Positions 11,399 through 18,576 of a stretch of 39,860 nt of DNA are shown here, piece by piece. Position 1 is the stretch's first letter, and each line of letters begins with the position of its first letter. A program made the position numbers and the translations under genes. The stretch spans positions 1 to 39,860 of the forward strand of contig JAPLFP010000295.1 of the NCBI GenBank assembly GCA_026390585.1, read 5' to 3'. This DNA comes from Ignavibacteriales bacterium. GTDB lineage: Bacteria > Bacteroidota > Ignavibacteria > UBA10030. The notes beneath the pieces are model-generated. The model was given only the letters and a program-made list of their open reading frames with translations. It was not told the origin of the DNA and made no database searches.

Positions 11399-11471
<73 letters not shown>

Positions 11472-11524
11472 CAATTGTGAAACAGACCGTCTGCAAGATG
11501 TGCACTTGATGAATGTGAAGACCC

Positions 11525-11713
11525 ATGAAAGAAAAAATCATAAACTTTTTCAATGATGTAGTGAAAGAGATGGGGAAAGTCACGTGGCCCACGCGCGAAG
11601 AACTCGCGGAATCCACAAAGATCGTCATCATCGTCTCCCTACTCATTTCTGTATTCACCTGGGGTGTTGACACCCTCTTGGCCGCAGCGCTCAAGGCCAT
11701 TCTTTCAATCTGA
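11525..11713 (+). CDS. secE: preprotein translocase subunit SecE
   Basis: This 62-residue, single-span SecE is the clamp subunit of the SecYEG channel. The N-terminal amphipathic helix (KIINFFNDVVKEMGKVTWP) holds the conserved KVTWPTREEL motif at about 18-27. One membrane segment (about 33-53) follows. Short bacterial SecE proteins of 60-65 residues are normal outside the enterobacteria. It lies 8 bases ahead of nusG, and its partner gene secY lies in the spc region at 36.9 kb. Confidence 0.96.
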   Translation: MKEKIINFFNDVVKEMGKVTWPTREELAESTKIVIIVSLLISVFTWGVDTLLAAALKAILSI

Positions 11714-11721
11714 GGAGAGGC

Positions 11722-12261
11722 ATGGAGTTGAACAAGCGCTGGTACGTTGTGCGAACATATTCAGGGCACGAGGCAAAGGTCAAGGTCTATCTCGAGTCGG
11801 AAGTCGCGCGTTTGAATCTGAGCGAGCGGCTCTCAAGCGTGATGATCCCGTCCGAAAAGGTCATTGAAGTGAAGGACGGCAAGAAGAAGGCAAGGGTGAA
11901 GAACTTCTTCCCCGGCTATGTTCTCGTGGAAGCCGTTCTTGACAAGGAGACGATTCATCTGATCCTTGAGGCTCCTTCTGTGTTGGGATTCGTCCCGGAC
12001 AAAAACAACCCTGCGCCGCTGCAACCCGACGAAGTGAGGAGGCTGATTGGGAAGATGGAGCAGAAGGGAGATGTCGAAATGATCGAAATCCCATTCAGGA
12101 TGGGAGACCCGGTCAAGGTCATCGAAGGACCCTTCAATAATTTCTCAGGCTTCGTTCAGGAAGTGAATCCCGAGAAACTGAAGGTGAAGGTCATGGTGAG
12201 TATCTTCGGTCGGAAGACGCCAGTGGAGTTGGATTTTGTTCAGGTGGAATTGGAAAAGTAG
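11722..12261 (+). CDS. nusG: transcription termination/antitermination factor NusG
   Basis: The 179-residue protein has the NGN domain first (KRWYVVRTYSGHE at about 5-17; FFPGYVLVE at about 62-70), which binds the RNA polymerase clamp. The C-terminal KOW domain follows (VIEGPFNNFSGFVQEV at about 134-149, FGRKTPVELDF), which in other bacteria contacts Rho or S10. Length is typical. The start ATG follows GAGGAG after secE, making a secE-nusG unit that continues to the L11 gene. Confidence 0.97.
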   Translation: MELNKRWYVVRTYSGHEAKVKVYLESEVARLNLSERLSSVMIPSEKVIEVKDGKKKARVKNFFPGYVLVEAVLDKETIHLILEAPSVLGFVPDKNNPAPLQPDEVRRLIGKMEQKGDVEMIEIPFRMGDPVKVIEGPFNNFSGFVQEVNPEKLKVKVMVSIFGRKTPVELDFVQVELEK

Positions 12262-12310
12262 GTTCTGATTTCGTAGGTCGTTCTATAAAGAAAAGAGAGG
12301 TAGATCGTTT

Positions 12311-12736
<426 letters not shown>

Positions 12737-12766
12737 TTTAGACGCACGGAAAGTGAGATTCATTGC

Positions 12767-13465
12767 ATGAAAACCCGAAGCAAGCGCTTCACAGCGGTAG
12801 CCAAGAAAGTCGAAAAGAAAAGCTACACCATCGTTGATGCAGTAGCGAAGGTGAAAGAAACCGCCTCGGCAAAGTTCGCTGAAGGTGTCGACATCGCAGT
12901 TCGTCTTGGAGTTGATCCCAAAAAGGCCGATCAGGCACTGCGCGGCACGGTCGCGCTCCCACACGGTATCGGAAAAGCGGTCCGTGTACTCGTCGTCGCC
13001 AAGCCCCCCAAAGATGATGAGGCGAAGGCGGCAGGCGCCGATTACGTTGGATTCCAGGAATACCTTGAGAAGATCCAGCAGGGGTGGGCTGATGTCGACG
13101 TCATCATTGCGACGCCGGATGTGATGGGCGATCTTGGAAAGCTCGGCAGGATTCTTGGTCCCCGCGGACTGATGCCCAACCCGAAAAGCGGCACCGTCAC
13201 GGCGGATGTTGGCAAGGCTGTGAAAGAAATCAAGGCGGGAAAGATTGAATTCCGCGTCGATAAAGCCGGCATCGTACACGCCACAGTCGGCAAGGCAAGT
13301 TTTGAGAAGGAAAAACTGGTGGAGAACATCCAGTCATTTCTTTCGACCATCGTTCGCCTGAAGCCTTCCACGGCGAAGGGAACGTATATCAAGAGCATCG
13401 CGATTTCGACAACGATGGGACCTGGGGTCCATATCGATCGCAGTGAAGTCGCCGCTCATCAATAA
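12767..13465 (+). CDS. rplA: 50S ribosomal protein L1
   Basis: 232 residues, normal length. Characteristic blocks are the N-terminal helix, [20 protein letters not shown] (about 40-59), [19 protein letters not shown] (about 126-144) and the C-terminal [11 protein letters not shown]1 builds the mobile stalk at the E site and in many bacteria represses its own L11-L1 mRNA. A 30-base gap follows rplK. Confidence 0.98.
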
Positions 13466-13494
13466 AGAACTTACGCACTCACATCAGAGAAACT

Positions 13495-13536
13495 GAAGTC
13501 CGGTGCCCGAGTGATCGGGGCTTCTCATCGGTCTTC
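13495..13536 (+). promoter_or_regulatory. L10-leader-like RNA structure ahead of rplJ
   Basis: GAAGTCCGGTG (13495-13505) pairs with CATCGGTCTTC (13526-13536) over 11 positions with one T-T mismatch and one G-T pair. Inside it CCCGA-GTGA-TCGGG (13506-13519) makes a perfect hairpin, leaving an asymmetric internal loop GCTTCT. A stem, bulge and stem of this kind in the 133-base rplA-rplJ gap matches the known L10(L12)4 autoregulatory leader, where L10 binds a kinked internal loop. Assignment is by position and shape. Confidence 0.65.
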
Positions 13537-13598
13537 ACGGGTCAGAGCAGTTGTTGACCTGCACGATGTAATCATTGAAGTCATCAGGAAGGTATCAC

Positions 13599-14120
13599 AT
13601 GAACCGATCGGACAAAGAGGCGATCGTAGCGGAAGTCGCTGACAAGGTAGCGCGTGCGACTGCTATGTACTTTGCCGACTTTACCGGATTGACCGTTGGA
13701 GAAGCATCTGAACTCCGGCGTGAATTCCGAAAAGCTGGCATCGAGTACACAGTGGTGAAGAATACGCTCGCGAAGAAAGCCTTGGAGCAGGTGACCGGAT
13801 ACGATCGCGTATATGAAAAGCTGGTTGGGCCGACTGGTATCGCATTCAGCTATGATGACGCAGTTGCTCCGGCGAAGATCATCAAGAAGTTCAGCGAGAA
13901 ATCAGGCAAGTTGAAACTCAAAGTCGCGGTTCTCGAGAAACAGGTCTTCGACGGCTCCAAACTGGACGAGCTCTCCAAACTCCCGACACGTGCCGAATTG
14001 ATGGCCGGAGTGCTGGGAAGCATTCAAGCACCGATCTCCGGTATCGTCGGAGCCATTGGCGCTGTTGCGCGTGATCTCGTCAACGTGATCGATGCGATCG
14101 AGAAAAAGAAGGCGGCGTAA
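13599..14120 (+). CDS. rplJ: 50S ribosomal protein L10
   Basis: 173 residues. L10 anchors the L7/L12 dimers to 23S rRNA through its N-terminal domain (ADFTGLTVGEASELRREFRKA; VVKNTLAKKAL) and holds L12 with its C-terminal helix. I chose ATG 13599, which follows AGGAAGG by 6 bases, rather than the upstream TTG at 13575 that lies before the ribosome-binding site. It is preceded by the structured leader described separately and followed by rplL after 42 bases. Confidence 0.97.
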   Translation: MNRSDKEAIVAEVADKVARATAMYFADFTGLTVGEASELRREFRKAGIEYTVVKNTLAKKALEQVTGYDRVYEKLVGPTGIAFSYDDAVAPAKIIKKFSEKSGKLKLKVAVLEKQVFDGSKLDELSKLPTRAELMAGVLGSIQAPISGIVGAIGAVARDLVNVIDAIEKKKAA

Positions 14121-14162
14121 CCGCACACAAGTTTGAACATACTTTAATGAAGGAGAATCACC

Positions 14163-14537
14163 ATGTCAGCAGTAGCAGAAATCGTTGAGAAAATTGAAAA
14201 GCTCACGCTGCTTGAGGCGTCAGAGCTGAAGAAGGCGCTCGAAGAGAAGTTCGGCGTCACGGCCGCAGCCCCGATGATGATGGCTGCCGCACCGGCAGCA
14301 GCCGCTGCAGCGCCGGTGGAAGAGAAGACCGAATTCGCCGTCGAATTGAAAAGCAGTGGTGCTCAGAAGATCAACGTCATCAAAGTCGTTCGCGCAGCCA
14401 CCGGACTCGGACTGAAGGAAGCCAAGGATCTTGTTGATGGCGCTCCGAAGGTCATCAAGGAAGGTCTGAATAAGGACGAAGCAGAGAAGTTGAAAAAGGA
14501 AATCGAAGAAGCCGGTGGACAAGTCGAGCTGAAGTAA
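14163..14537 (+). CDS. rplL: 50S ribosomal protein L7/L12
   Basis: 124 residues. The N-terminal dimerisation helix (about 1-35) is followed by an Ala-rich flexible hinge ([14 protein letters not shown], about 39-52). The C-terminal factor-binding domain contains [20 protein letters not shown] and ends GGQVELK. The stalk recruits EF-G, EF-Tu and IF2. AAGGAGAA precedes the start. Confidence 0.98.
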
Positions 14538-14802
14538 CAGCTGTCTCACTCTTTTTCGAACTTTCTTTTTTCCGACGTTGTTGACAAACAGCACCAAAAA
14601 TCTGACGAACACTTTAGGACTTAAAGCCGATGGTTTCCCCGCTTTCGGGCGGGTGTGAGCCATCGGCTTGAGTTATCTTTAGGAGGGCAGCGCCCCCAAG
14701 CCCCGGGATCATTGCTCTCACAGCAGAACAATTGCCGGGTTGTAGGAACGTGAGGGCTCTTGTAGTGCGGTCCATTCATCTATCTCAGAAGGAGTGGTTG
14801 AA
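14538..14802 (+). promoter_or_regulatory. structured rplL-rpoB leader
   Basis: This 265-base gap has no gene but several strong folds. AAGCCGATGG (14624-14633) pairs perfectly with CCATCGGCTT (14660-14669) and encloses CCCGC/GCGGG (14638-14653). GGGC-AGC-GCCC lies at 14685-14695. CCCGG (14702-14706) can pair with CCGGG (14735-14739), and GCTCTCAC (14714-14721) with GTGAGGGC (14750-14757). The last two pairings interleave, so they form either a pseudoknot or two alternative states. No T-run follows the long stem. A TTGACA at 14581 lacks a good -10 box. In many bacteria this gap carries an attenuator or RNase III site that sets the rplL:rpoB ratio, and a similar role is inferred. Confidence 0.55.
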
Positions 14803-17800
14803 TTGAAAAACCAATCCAATGGCACAACCGGTCGAATCTCTTTCGGCCGCATCCCATCGGTTATTGAAACCCCGGACCTGCTCAACGTCCAGACGGATTC
14901 CTTCCACAGGTTCTTGCAGGCGGACGTGCCGCCGCATCGACGGAAGAAATTTGGTCTGCAACAGGTCTTCGAAATGAATTTCCCGATCACCGACGCGCGC
15001 GAAAACTTTCTCCTGGAGTTTGCGGAGTACTACGTCGAGAAACCGAAGTACTCTGTGGTCGAATGTCAGGAACGTGGATTGACATTCTCCGTTCCGCTGA
15101 AAGCGAAACTGCGCCTCTCGTCAAAACGTGAAGGGAGTCAAGAGTTCACTGATACCGTCGAACAGGAAGTGTATCTTGGCAATCTTCCAGCCATGACGAT
15201 GCGTGGAACCTTCATCATCAACGGCGCGGAACGCGTCGTCGTGAGCCAGCTCCATCGCTCTCCCGGCGTTTTCTTCGGTGAATCCGTTCATCCGAACGGA
15301 ACCTTGATGTATTCCGCCCGCATCATCCCCTTCCGTGGATCGTGGGTTGAATTCTCCACGGACATCAACAATGTGATGTACGCGTATATCGACCGCAAGA
15401 AGAAATTCCCCGTCACGACGCTGTTGCGCGCCCTGGGCTATTCTTCGGATGATGAGATCCTCGATCTCTTTGAGTTGGTTGAAGAAGTCGATACGAACAA
15501 AGTCAACCTGAAGGAACTCGTCGGTCGCACGGTGTGCAGCGACGTGTTCGACAAGAAGACGGGCGAAATTTTCATCAACAAGGACGCAAAGCTGACGGAA
15601 GACCACATCAAGCAGATCAAGAAGTCGGAGGTCAAGAAAATCCGCATGCTGAAGTCTGAAGCAACGGACGGCTCCGTGATCGCGAACACGATTCTTCGTG
15701 ACGTCGCCCGATCCGAGGAAGACGCTTTGGAGACCATCTACTCGCAACTTCGTTCCGGCGAGGCTCCGGATCTCGACACGGCGAAGAACCTCATCGACCG
15801 CTTGTTCTTCAACCCGAAGCGCTATGACCTCGGTGACGTTGGCCGGCATCGCATGAACGCAAAGCTCGGACTGAGCATCAAAGAGGACGTGACAACGCTG
15901 ACCCGAGAAGATATCGTTGCCATCGTAAAGTACCTGATCGCTTTGCAGCAGGGCAAAAAGAACGTGGACGATATCGATCATCTCGGCAATCGTCGCGTCC
16001 GGACCGTCGGAGAGCAGCTGGCGCAGCAATTCAACGTCGGTCTGTCACGCATGACCCGAACGATTCGTGAACGCATGAACCTGCGTGACAGCGAGACGAT
16101 CACGCCGCAAGACCTGGTGAATGCTCGAACGATTACCAGCGTCATCAACGCATTCTTCGGTACCAACCAGCTGTCGCAGTTCATGGATCAAACAAATCCG
16201 CTCGCGGAAATGACGCACAAACGTCGCGTTTCGGCCCTTGGACCCGGCGGTCTGACACGTGAGCGCGCTGGATTCGAAGTTCGCGACGTTCACTACACAC
16301 ACTATGGCCGGTTGTGCCCGATCGAAACGCCGGAAGGCCCAAACATCGGATTGATATCGTCCCTGTGCATTCATGCCCGCATCAATGATTTCGGTTTCAT
16401 TGAAACGCCGTACCGTAAGGTAAAAGGCGGAAAGGTCACCGAGGAAATCGATTTCCTCGCAGCAGAAAAAGAAGATGAGGTGACGATTGCTCAGGCGAAC
16501 GCCCCCTTGGATGACCGCGGACGCTTCAAGGAAGACAGAGTCAAGTCACGCTTCCAAAGCGATTATCCGCTTGCTGAGCCTGATAAGATCCAGTACATGG
16601 ATGTGGCACCGAACCAGATTGTCAGCGCCGCTGCTGCATTGATCCCCTTCCTGGAGCACGATGACGCAAACCGCGCTTTGATGGGCTCGAACATGCAACG
16701 CCAGGCCGTGCCGTTGTTGACGCCGGATCCGCCGATCGTTGGAACCGGTCTTGAGGAAAAACTCGCCCGGGATTCCCGCACGATCATTGTCGCCGAGCGC
16801 AACGGTATGGTTGAATCCGTCACGGCGGACAGCATCATCGTTCAATATGACATCGACGAAAACAGCACCGAAGCCATCATCAGTTTCGACGACAAGCGCC
16901 GTGTTGAATACAAGCTCACCAAGTTCTTCCGCACGAACCAGGATACCTGCATCAACCAGAAGCCGGTTGTGGAGGAAGGAGATCGCATCAAGCGCGGCGA
17001 TGTCCTTGCAGACGGTTGTGCAACGAAGGGAGGAGAACTGGCACTCGGGCGCAACGTTCTGGTGGCGTTCATGCCGTGGAGAGGGTACAACTTCGAAGAC
17101 GCTATCATCATCAGCGAGCGCATTGTCGCAGAGGACGTCTTCACCTCAATCCACATCGAGGAGTTTGAGCTTCAGGTTCGCGATACAAAACGGGGCGAAG
17201 AGGAACTCACCCGTGAGATTCCGAATGTCAGCGAGGAGGCGACGAAAGACCTCGATGAGAACGGAATTGTGCGCATCGGTGCCGAAGTGAACGAAGGTGA
17301 TATCCTCATCGGTAAGATCACGCCGAAAGGTGAGACAGACCCGACGCCTGAAGAGAAATTGCTCAAGGCGATTTTTGGAGAGAAGGCGGGCGATGTGAAG
17401 GATGCATCGCTGAAAGCACCTCCCGGAATGAAGGGGGTCGTGATCTCGACGAAGCTGTTCAGCCGCAAGAAAAAAGACACCGAAAGCAAGAAGGAAGACA
17501 AGAAAAGGCTCGAGTCTCTCGAACGGTCGAGAAAGAAAGACCTCAAAGAGCTTCTCGAAAAACTCGGAAAGAAACTCGATCAGCTTCTCGCCGGCGAGAA
17601 GTCTTCTGGTATTCGCGACAACGACGGCAATGTCATCGTCCGTAGCGGCACGTCGCTCAAGGAAGACACCTTCCGGTCGTTGGAGGGCCTTGACGCTCTC
17701 GACTACAACCAGGATTGGGTTGACGACAAGCGCAAGAACAACATGTTGGTGAAGATCTACGAGAACTACCGTCAGAAACTGAGCGAAATCGAAGAGCTCT

Positions 17801-18576
17801 ATCGTCACGAGAAGAACAAGATCCAACTCGGCGATGAACTTGCTCCCGGCATTGTCCAGCTGGCAAAGGTTTATGTCGCGAAGAAGCGTAAGCTCTCCGT
17901 TGGAGACAAGATGGCGGGCCGACACGGAAACAAGGGCGTCGTTTCCACGATTGTTCCGGTGGAAGACATGCCGTTCCTTCCGAAAGGTCGTCCTGTTGAC
18001 ATCGTCCTGAACCCGCTCGGCGTTCCTTCCCGCATGAATCTAGGACAGTTGTTCGAGGTCGCTCTTGGATGGGCGGGCCATGAACTTGGAGAGACGTATG
18101 CGTCCCCGATTTTCGATGGCGCAACATGGGAGGATGTGCAGGAACATCTGCGCAAGGCGGGCCTGAGCGAGAACTCGAAGTCTGTTCTCATCGATGGCCG
18201 AAGCGGAGAGCCCTTCGATCAGGAAGTGAGCGTGGGATATATCTATATGATGAAACTCTCGCACCTGGTCGACGACAAGATCCACGCCCGGTCCATCGGA
18301 CCATACTCTCTTATCACCCAGCAGCCGCTTGGTGGCAAGGCGCAGTTCGGCGGCCAGCGTTTCGGAGAGATGGAAGTGTGGGCGCTCGAAGGCTACGGAG
18401 CGTCACATGTTCTGCAGGAAATCCTGACCGTCAAATCCGACGACGTCGTCGGAAGGGCCAAGGTGTACGAGGCCATCGTCAAAGGAGATAACCTTCCTGA
18501 GCCGAACATTCCTGAGTCGTTCAACGTGCTCATTCGGGAGTTGCAAGGGCTGGGTCTGGAAATCAAGATTGAGTGA
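14803..18576 (+). CDS. rpoB: DNA-directed RNA polymerase subunit beta
   Basis: This 1257-residue protein is the beta subunit. The rifampicin pocket reads [19 protein letters not shown] followed by [18 protein letters not shown] (about 460-500), with the usual susceptible residues. Further landmarks are [45 protein letters not shown] and the C-terminal [19 protein letters not shown] Lys/Glu-rich insert occurs around residues 890-930. I chose TTG at 14803 because AGAAGGAG lies 8 bases upstream. The GTG at 14794 overlaps that site and cannot use it. rpoC follows after 81 bases. Confidence 0.97.

What the first reader, a model, noticed from the sequence alone, without database searches (positions are those of the whole stretch)
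14620..14760. rpoB leader with a long nested stem and a possible pseudoknot or switch
Besides a perfect 10-bp outer stem enclosing an inner CCCGC/GCGGG hairpin, the leader has CCCGG/CCGGG (14702-14739) and GCTCTCAC/GTGAGGGC (14714-14757). These pairings interleave, so they can make a pseudoknot or exclude one another. None of the stems is a simple terminator. Such an element could set RNA polymerase output relative to L7/L12 by a route different from the known E. coli attenuator.
Basis: partly seen in the sequence, partly recalled or inferred. Interest (0 to 1): 0.5.

Follow-up and report, generated by a model that had tools for sequence, protein, structure and literature searches.

The report
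rpoB leader: stress promoter plus attenuator hairpin
The stretch before the RNA polymerase gene rpoB in this Ignavibacteria-like bacterium holds a conserved RNA hairpin where E. coli has a transcription attenuator, and just upstream of it a stress-sigma-type promoter, so the supply of RNA polymerase may be tied to a stress response.

Summary
The main hairpin (14618-14676) is real and conserved. It lies between rplL and rpoB in 26 of 27 loci of the window's family and 45 of 57 further loci of its order, with compensatory changes in the upper stem. The same gap carries a terminator-like hairpin in 53 of 56 named Bacteroidota (shuffles 4-9). Best reading: the local version of the rpoBC leader attenuator known from E. 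coli. In the window's own family the U-tract has decayed (T-run of 4 or more in 0 of 16), so its strength there is uncertain. The interleaved downstream pairings (pseudoknot or switch) are not conserved within the genus and pair no better than shuffles. It matches the published SigH/SigR/SigE-type ECF consensus. The same motif precedes the genome's SigH/SigR-like sigma gene (17 of 30 loci) and the primary sigma gene (16 of 29 family loci). Function is inferred; no transcript was measured.

The parts
14163..14537 (+). rplL (ribosomal protein L7/L12), gene upstream of the gap
   Evidence: ORF of 124 aa; the name is by recall of the sequence and operon order; its relatives were located with it as a tblastn query
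14558..14582 (+). SigH/SigR-type ECF promoter-like site: -35 GAAC(TT) 14558-14561, 17-nt spacer, -10 TGTT 14579-14582
   Evidence: Spacing histogram over 83 gaps: 22 at N17, 4 at N18, shuffle mean 0.39 per spacing; single exact match to GAACTT-N14-16-TGTT in the window, 0.27 expected by chance; same motif upstream of sigH-like and sigA genes
14618..14676 (+). Conserved attenuator-like hairpin: basal extension GACTTAA/TTGAGTT (14618-14624 with 14670-14676 region), outer stem AAGCCGATGG/CCATCGGCTT 14624-14669, inner stem CCCGC/GCGGG 14638-14653
   Evidence: Fold, coordinates, alignment and pair counts, covariance-model hits
14670..14690 (+). Tail after the 3' arm, GAGTTATCTTTAGGAGGGCAG: conserved in the family (TTnnGCYRTCTWTAG) but without a T-run; position of the U-tract in sister families
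   Evidence: Alignments A1 and A2, tail consensus and T-run counts
14702..14757 (+).
   Evidence: Pair counts no better than shuffles over six genus members; pair probabilities 0.07-0.26
14790..14794 (+). Shine-Dalgarno AGGAG of rpoB
   Evidence: Sequence; conserved in the genus alignment A3
14803..18576 (+). rpoB (RNA polymerase beta subunit), probable TTG start at 14803, in frame with the GTG at 14794 listed by the ORF finder
   Evidence: ORF; relatives in 28 of 32 family genomes and 86 of 98 order genomes

Best explanation
The rplL-rpoB gap is a compound control region for rpoBC. (1) An ECF-type promoter of the SigH/SigR class (GAAC-N17-TGTT, 14558-14582) can start an rpoB-specific transcript a few bases downstream. 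(2) About 40 nt further on, both that transcript and read-through from rplKAJL form a conserved hairpin (14618-14676) at the site of the E. coli rpoBC leader attenuator. The hairpin acts as a partial terminator or pause element that keeps rpoBC transcription below rplJL; it is strong-looking in sister families and other Bacteroidota and weakened in this family by loss of the U-tract. (3) Release of a SigH/SigR-like sigma from its ZAS-type anti-sigma under oxidative or thiol stress would add rpoBC, and in this family sigA, transcription to rebuild RNA polymerase. Shown here by comparison: the hairpin, its compensatory changes, its place, the promoter motif, its spacing, and its sharing with the sigH-like and sigA genes. 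Inferred: which sigma uses it, the start site, partial termination, and the stress logic.
For: Hairpin: found by covariance model R1 in 26 of 27 family loci (16 of these trained the model, 10 of the 11 others were found), in 45 of 57 other loci of the order at E<=0.01 (37 of these 57 trained it), and next to rplL and rpoB in 5 genomes of another family of the class, f20, none of them in training; a sixth (L198) is cut off before rplL. 93.4% of cells paired over 53 sequences; 6 of 10 pairs have double-sided changes, 43 such cells against 16.4 in shuffles and at most 17 in slid versions. Terminator-like element in the same gap in 53 of 56 named Bacteroidota, shuffles 9, 7, 6, 4. Promoter: GAAC-TGTT at N17 in 22 of 83 gaps, shuffles 0.39 (one of the 22, L166, lies across the hairpin and is not this site). 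End of TGTT to hairpin 36.7 +/- 6.9 nt over 33 gaps against hairpin to rpoB 113 +/- 35. Same motif upstream of sigH-like genes: 17 of 30 loci with -10 TGTT or CGTT, spacing 17. Upstream of sigA: 14 of 29 family loci with GAAC-N17/18-TGTT, 16 with two GGAC variants. In the own genome only 1 of 19 PF08281 hits has it upstream, the gene nearest to Mtb SigH (E 1.4e-43) with an RsrA-like ORF next to it. Published consensus GGAAYR-N17-18-GTT (Mtb SigH; PMC4803200 passages), GGAAT-N18-19-GTT (SigR; PMC9205884 passages).
Against: No transcript, start site or termination data. In the window's family the tail has no T-run of 4 or more (0 of 16) and only 12 of 26 gaps score terminator-like against 2-5 in shuffles. 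The base before GAAC is C in the window, not G. Within the genus G004 and G005 lack the promoter match and G003 has N16; of 83 gaps most lack an exact N17 match. sigA spacing is 18, not 17, and outside the family 39 sigA loci show only two weak hits far upstream. Genome-wide the motif is not enriched: 37 against 67 for the reversed pattern in the own genome, 47 against 52 over 32 family genomes for GGAACTT-N15-TGTT; the strict form in six genus genomes is 21 against 12. The sigma and anti-sigma score below NCBIfam cut-offs. Shuffles keep composition, not relatedness, so the 83 gaps are not independent.
Confidence: 0.6

Rival explanations
1. The hairpin is an RNA-processing or mRNA-stabilising element: an RNase III type double-stranded site that separates the rplKAJL and rpoBC messages, or a 5' stem-loop protecting the rpoB transcript, rather than a terminator.
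For: The window-family hairpin is long and has no U-run. RNase III cuts the E. coli rplL-rpoB region (PMC2777011 passage). If the promoter is used, the hairpin starts about 30-40 nt into the message.
Against: Sister families and other Bacteroidota have terminator-like forms in the same gap.
Confidence: 0.2
2. The conserved stem sequence (GCCGAT/ATCGGC) is bound by a protein that adjusts read-through or translation of rpoB, an autoregulatory site.
For: Three of ten stem pairs vary little or not at all (CG, CG, GC) over 53 sequences and the 3' TCGG is invariant, more sequence conservation than a bare terminator needs.
Against: Loop, internal loop and apical helix vary freely in length and sequence; f20 and f3 versions are simple hairpins; AAGCC..GGCTT type stems also occur at unrelated terminators in the class (12 of 12 non-f20 class hits fetched are not next to rplL or rpoB).
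Confidence: 0.12
3. GAAC-N17-TGTT is not a SigH/SigR promoter but a site for another DNA-binding protein or another sigma, or a boxA-like RNA signal.
For: No genome-wide enrichment; spacing 18 at sigA; I first considered boxA because several gaps read CTCTTTTTGAAC.
Against: Fixed spacing with variable spacer, presence upstream of genes with no gene in front (sigH-like, sigA), placement upstream of the one SigH/SigR-like gene, and match to the published consensus.
Confidence: 0.2
4. First reader's pseudoknot or mutually exclusive switch built from CCCGG/CCGGG and GCTCTCAC/GTGAGGGC.
For: The strings are there and interleave.
Against: CCCGG/CCGGG is broken in all five other genus members and the other helix is intact in none of them; pair counts equal shuffles; low pair probability.
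Confidence: 0.03

Closest known systems
E. coli rpoBC leader attenuator in the rplL-rpoB gap (Barry 1980; Steward and Linn 1992; both seen only as references)
   Same: Same place between rplL and rpoB; hairpin; sister lineages here have a U-rich tail; E. coli attenuator decouples ribosomal protein and RNA polymerase expression (PMC4670729 passage). Similar elements were predicted in cyanobacteria (PMC1242208 passages) and Shewanella (PMC2659441 passages).
   Different: No T-run in the window's family; conserved stem sequence across the order; an ECF-type promoter a fixed distance upstream; no measured termination.
SigH/SigR/SigE-type ECF promoters of actinobacteria (GGAAC/T-N17-19-GTT)
   Same: GAAC, 17-nt spacer, (T)GTT; autoregulated sigma gene; also controls a primary or primary-like sigma gene (hrdB under ShbA and SigR, PMC9205884 passages; sigB under SigH, PMC4803200 passages).
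   Different: Found here in Ignavibacteriales and in front of rpoBC; rpoB does not occur in the main text of PMC4803200 or PMC4921905.
Own rpoB-rpoC promoters of mycobacteria (two promoters; PMC6181997 passages) and internal rpoBC promoter of E. coli (PMC12083536 passages)
   Same: rpoBC can have its own promoter downstream of, or apart from, the ribosomal protein genes.
   Different: Those passages do not describe an ECF SigH/SigR promoter or a hairpin at fixed distance.

Membership tests
rpoBC leader attenuator (E. coli type) | Located between rplL and rpoB on the coding strand | tested here: met
rpoBC leader attenuator (E. coli type) | Stable hairpin conserved with compensatory change | tested here: met
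rpoBC leader attenuator (E. coli type) | U-tract right after the hairpin | tested here: not met
   Window and family: T-run of 4 or more in 0 of 16; met in f2, f3 and partly f5, f6. I therefore say it works like an attenuator, not that the window copy is a proven member
rpoBC leader attenuator (E. coli type) | Partial termination measured in vivo | not testable with these tools
   No RNA data held
SigH/SigR-type ECF promoter | -35 GGAAC/T | tested here: inconclusive
   GAACT met; the first G is C in the window
SigH/SigR-type ECF promoter | -10 (c/T)GTT at 17-18 nt | tested here: met
   TGTT at N17; consensus from passages
SigH/SigR-type ECF promoter | A SigH/SigR-like sigma in the genome, itself preceded by the motif | tested here: met
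   L339
SigH/SigR-type ECF promoter | Transcription by that sigma | not testable with these tools
   Needs in vitro transcription or a mutant
SigH_actino (NCBIfam TIGR02947) | Score above curated cut-off | tested here: not met
   184.9 bits against 251.55; best of 91 families
RsrA anti-sigma (NCBIfam TIGR03988) | Score above curated cut-off, ZAS motif HxxxCxxC | tested here: inconclusive
   34.1 bits against 62.5; HLERCRPC present
Any Rfam family | Match at gathering score in the leader | tested here: not met
   (only tRNAs in the window); two weak chance-level matches outside the hairpin

The most novel reading that the evidence does not exclude
In Ignavibacteriales a single redox-stress ECF sigma of the SigH/SigR class drives the genes for the RNA polymerase core (rpoBC) and, in the window's family, the primary sigma factor (sigA), together with its own gene, and the rpoBC message passes an attenuator hairpin placed a fixed distance after that promoter, so that stress rebuilds the whole holoenzyme while unstressed read-through from rplKAJL is held down.
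Probability: 0.45. Interest if true: 0.65.

Novelty: new variant of a known kind. Interest (0 to 1): 0.45.

Why it matters
rpoBC output sets how much RNA polymerase a cell has, and the E. coli attenuator in front of it is still incompletely understood. A terminator-like hairpin in the same gap in 53 of 56 named Bacteroidota and an order-wide conserved hairpin here make that control testable by comparison in lineages far from E. coli. A SigH/SigR-type promoter in front of both rpoBC and sigA would link stress sensing directly to the supply of the transcription machine, extending what is known for hrdB in Streptomyces to the polymerase core itself.

Tried and rejected
Pseudoknot or switch from the downstream pairings: rejected on conservation. 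Known RNA family: no Rfam match. Housekeeping promoter: the sigma-70 scan over 11400-15000 found 3 sites on the minus strand, none in the gap on the plus strand. Leader peptide: an ATG in GCCGATGG opens a short frame in the window and some close relatives, but hairpin length varies out of frame in other genera and no Shine-Dalgarno precedes it (read by eye; no test run). boxA: considered from CTCTTTTTGAAC, dropped for the promoter reading. DNA operator palindrome: unlikely because the space between the arms varies widely. Kink-turn or ribosomal-protein mimic: considered by eye only; sister-family hairpins have no internal loop. K for the ECF upstream scan: the first script failed to find most ORFs and was replaced. 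The first T-tract script picked some wrong tails (values of 0.00) and was replaced. Literature on ECF control of rpoBC: searches; on the attenuator. I saw listings and found passages only, no whole paper. I did not find a report of a SigH/SigR promoter at rpoBC or of this hairpin, but the library lacks most subscription papers and the key SigR regulon paper (PMC4546429) was not held. Rows dropped: L060, L061, L063, L064 as duplicates of unnamed-genome contigs, L056 because its rplL match was partial, L062 and L065 as outsiders; L057, L058, L196 lacked one gene.

Full report
Where it is. The window comes from a genome of 4.7 Mb in 379 contigs with no name; its nearest named relatives by RpoB are Ignavibacteriae or Ignavibacteriales MAGs (best 90% identity, L060). 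The gap runs from the rplL stop at 14537 to rpoB, whose likely start is a TTG at 14803 behind AGGAG at 14790-14794.

The observation. The stretch 14618-14765 folds more stably than all 200 shuffles (z -3.23), mostly because of the hairpin at 14618-14676. The wider 14538-14810 is not exceptional (z -1.33). In the fold of 14590-14830 the hairpin dominates and the two downstream pairings have probabilities of 0.07-0.26.

Conservation of the hairpin. The gap was collected from relatives by finding rplL and rpoB. The core AGCCGATRR...YYATCGGCTTG recurs with variable loops. On 53 sequences 93.4% of cells in ten pairs are standard pairs, six pairs have changes on both sides, and 43 cells carry such changes against 16.4 in shuffles and at most 17 when the partner is slid. 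A covariance model built on these finds 26 of 27 family loci (10 of 11 not used in training), 45 of 57 other order loci, and, among 245 class genomes, six of another family (f20) that were not in training; five of these six are next to both rplL and rpoB and the sixth next to rpoB at a contig end. Twelve other class hits that I fetched, of 16 outside f20, are not near rplL or rpoB and look like ordinary terminators. Loci without a hit at E<=0.01 are L052 in the family and 12 in the order, many of them in f6, where a shorter GGC..GCTTGC hairpin can be seen by eye.

Attenuator or not. Named Bacteroidota with a measurable gap have a terminator-like stem plus T-rich tail in 53 of 56 cases, against 4-9 in four shuffles; family f3 has it in 14 of 14, f5 in 17 of 18, the window's family in only 12 of 26 against 2-5. 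Runs of four or more T after the stem: f1 0 of 16, f2 3 of 3, f3 13 of 13, f5 7 of 13, f6 4 of 8. So the position is attenuated across the group, and the window's family keeps the stem and a conserved tail (TTnnGCYRTCTWTAG) but not the U-run. What that tail does is unexplained. E. coli has an attenuator in this gap that decouples ribosomal protein and polymerase expression (PMC4670729 passage), RNase III also acts there (PMC2777011 passage), and similar leaders were predicted in cyanobacteria and Shewanella.

The switch. In the five other members of the genus CCCGG/CCGGG is broken in all and GCTCTCAC/GTGAGGGC is intact in none. Pairing equals shuffles (53.3% against 51.6%; 62.5% against 61.8%), whereas outer and inner stems pair in 98.9%. 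The inner stem shows a compensatory C-G to T-A change.

The promoter. Aligning the 5' part of the gap showed GAACTTTT followed by TGTT. Over 83 gaps the two boxes are 17 apart in 22 and 18 apart in 4, while shuffles give 0.39 per spacing and the reverse strand shows no peak. One of the 22 (L166) lies across the hairpin and is not this site. By family the upstream N17 sites are 13 in f1, 6 in f5 and 2 in f3 (counted). In 33 gaps with a looser site before the hairpin, the distance from the -10 box to the stem is 36.7 +/- 6.9 nt, while the hairpin to rpoB distance is 113 +/- 35. In the genus, the own genome, G001 and G002 have N17, G003 has N16, and G004 and G005 have no match.

Which sigma. The boxes equal the published SigH/SigR/SigE consensus: GGAAYR-N17-18-GTT, GGAAT-N18-19-GTT, GGAAC-N17-18-cGTT; Mtb SigH works best at 17 bp. 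Of 19 PF08281 hits in the own genome (ECF sigmas and several response regulators), one, L339, has GAAC-N17-TGTT upstream. Its closest NCBIfam model is SigH_actino and its closest solved relative Mtb SigH (1.4e-43), both as best hits though the model score is below its cut-off; the next ORF resembles RsrA, also below cut-off, with a ZAS motif. Relatives of it occur in 86 of 98 order genomes at E<=1e-45, and 17 of 30 upstream regions carry the motif at spacing 17. The primary sigma gene sigA carries it at spacing 18 (one at 17) in 14 of 29 family loci, 16 with two GGAC variants, 72-109 nt before the start; the own genome's two sigA paralogues and 39 loci outside the family do not have it in that place. 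In six genus genomes the strict pattern gives 21 hits against 12 for the reversed pattern, 14 of them in front of rpoB (2), sigA (4), a multiheme cytochrome gene (5), a DoxX-like gene (2) and a response regulator (1) (the last three names partly by recall). Against this, looser patterns show no genome-wide excess: 37 against 67 and 47 against 52.

Reading. I take the gap as a stress-sigma promoter followed by an attenuator-type hairpin. In Streptomyces hrdB is under SigR among others and SigR maintains the housekeeping sigma under thiol stress (review passage), so sigA control has a precedent; control of rpoBC by this class I did not find in the searches. The evidence is comparative only.

Noticed in passing
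L354, L357, L359-L370 upstream regions: In front of the sigH-like gene a long-range stem GGTCGCC...GGCGAC/GGCGATC ends right at the start codon in many loci, as if translation of the sigma gene were controlled by its own leader.
   Followed up: no
L271-L276: The sigA leader in genus g9 has its own conserved hairpin CCCG.AG.....CT.CGGG between the promoter-like site and the start codon.
   Followed up: no
G000:C92, C33, C34: The window's genome has three primary-type sigma genes 93-100% identical in protein; only the C92 copy has the GAAC-N18-TGTT site.
   Followed up: partly
L321, L325, L328, L332, L333: A multiheme cytochrome c gene (by recall the first gene of an alternative complex III operon) has the same promoter-like site about 110 nt upstream in five of six genus genomes.
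   Followed up: partly
L384, L385, L395, L410, L412, L391, L396: GGAACTT-N15-TGTT also lies in front of genes that read like superoxide dismutase, dienelactone hydrolase, DoxX and the sigH-like gene (names by eye), in keeping with an oxidative-stress regulon.
   Followed up: partly
L147, L150, L151, L154, L157, L164, L166, L174: Several loci, mainly family f6, have a second strong stem directly after the rplL stop, before the rpoB hairpin.
   Followed up: no
window 14803 and family loci: rpoB starts with TTG, a weak start codon, in the family loci read, and TTG or GTG in other order loci read by eye.
   Followed up: no
window 14670-14690 and family tails: The family tail TTnnGCYRTCTWTAG is conserved although it is not a U-tract; its role is unexplained.
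   Followed up: partly
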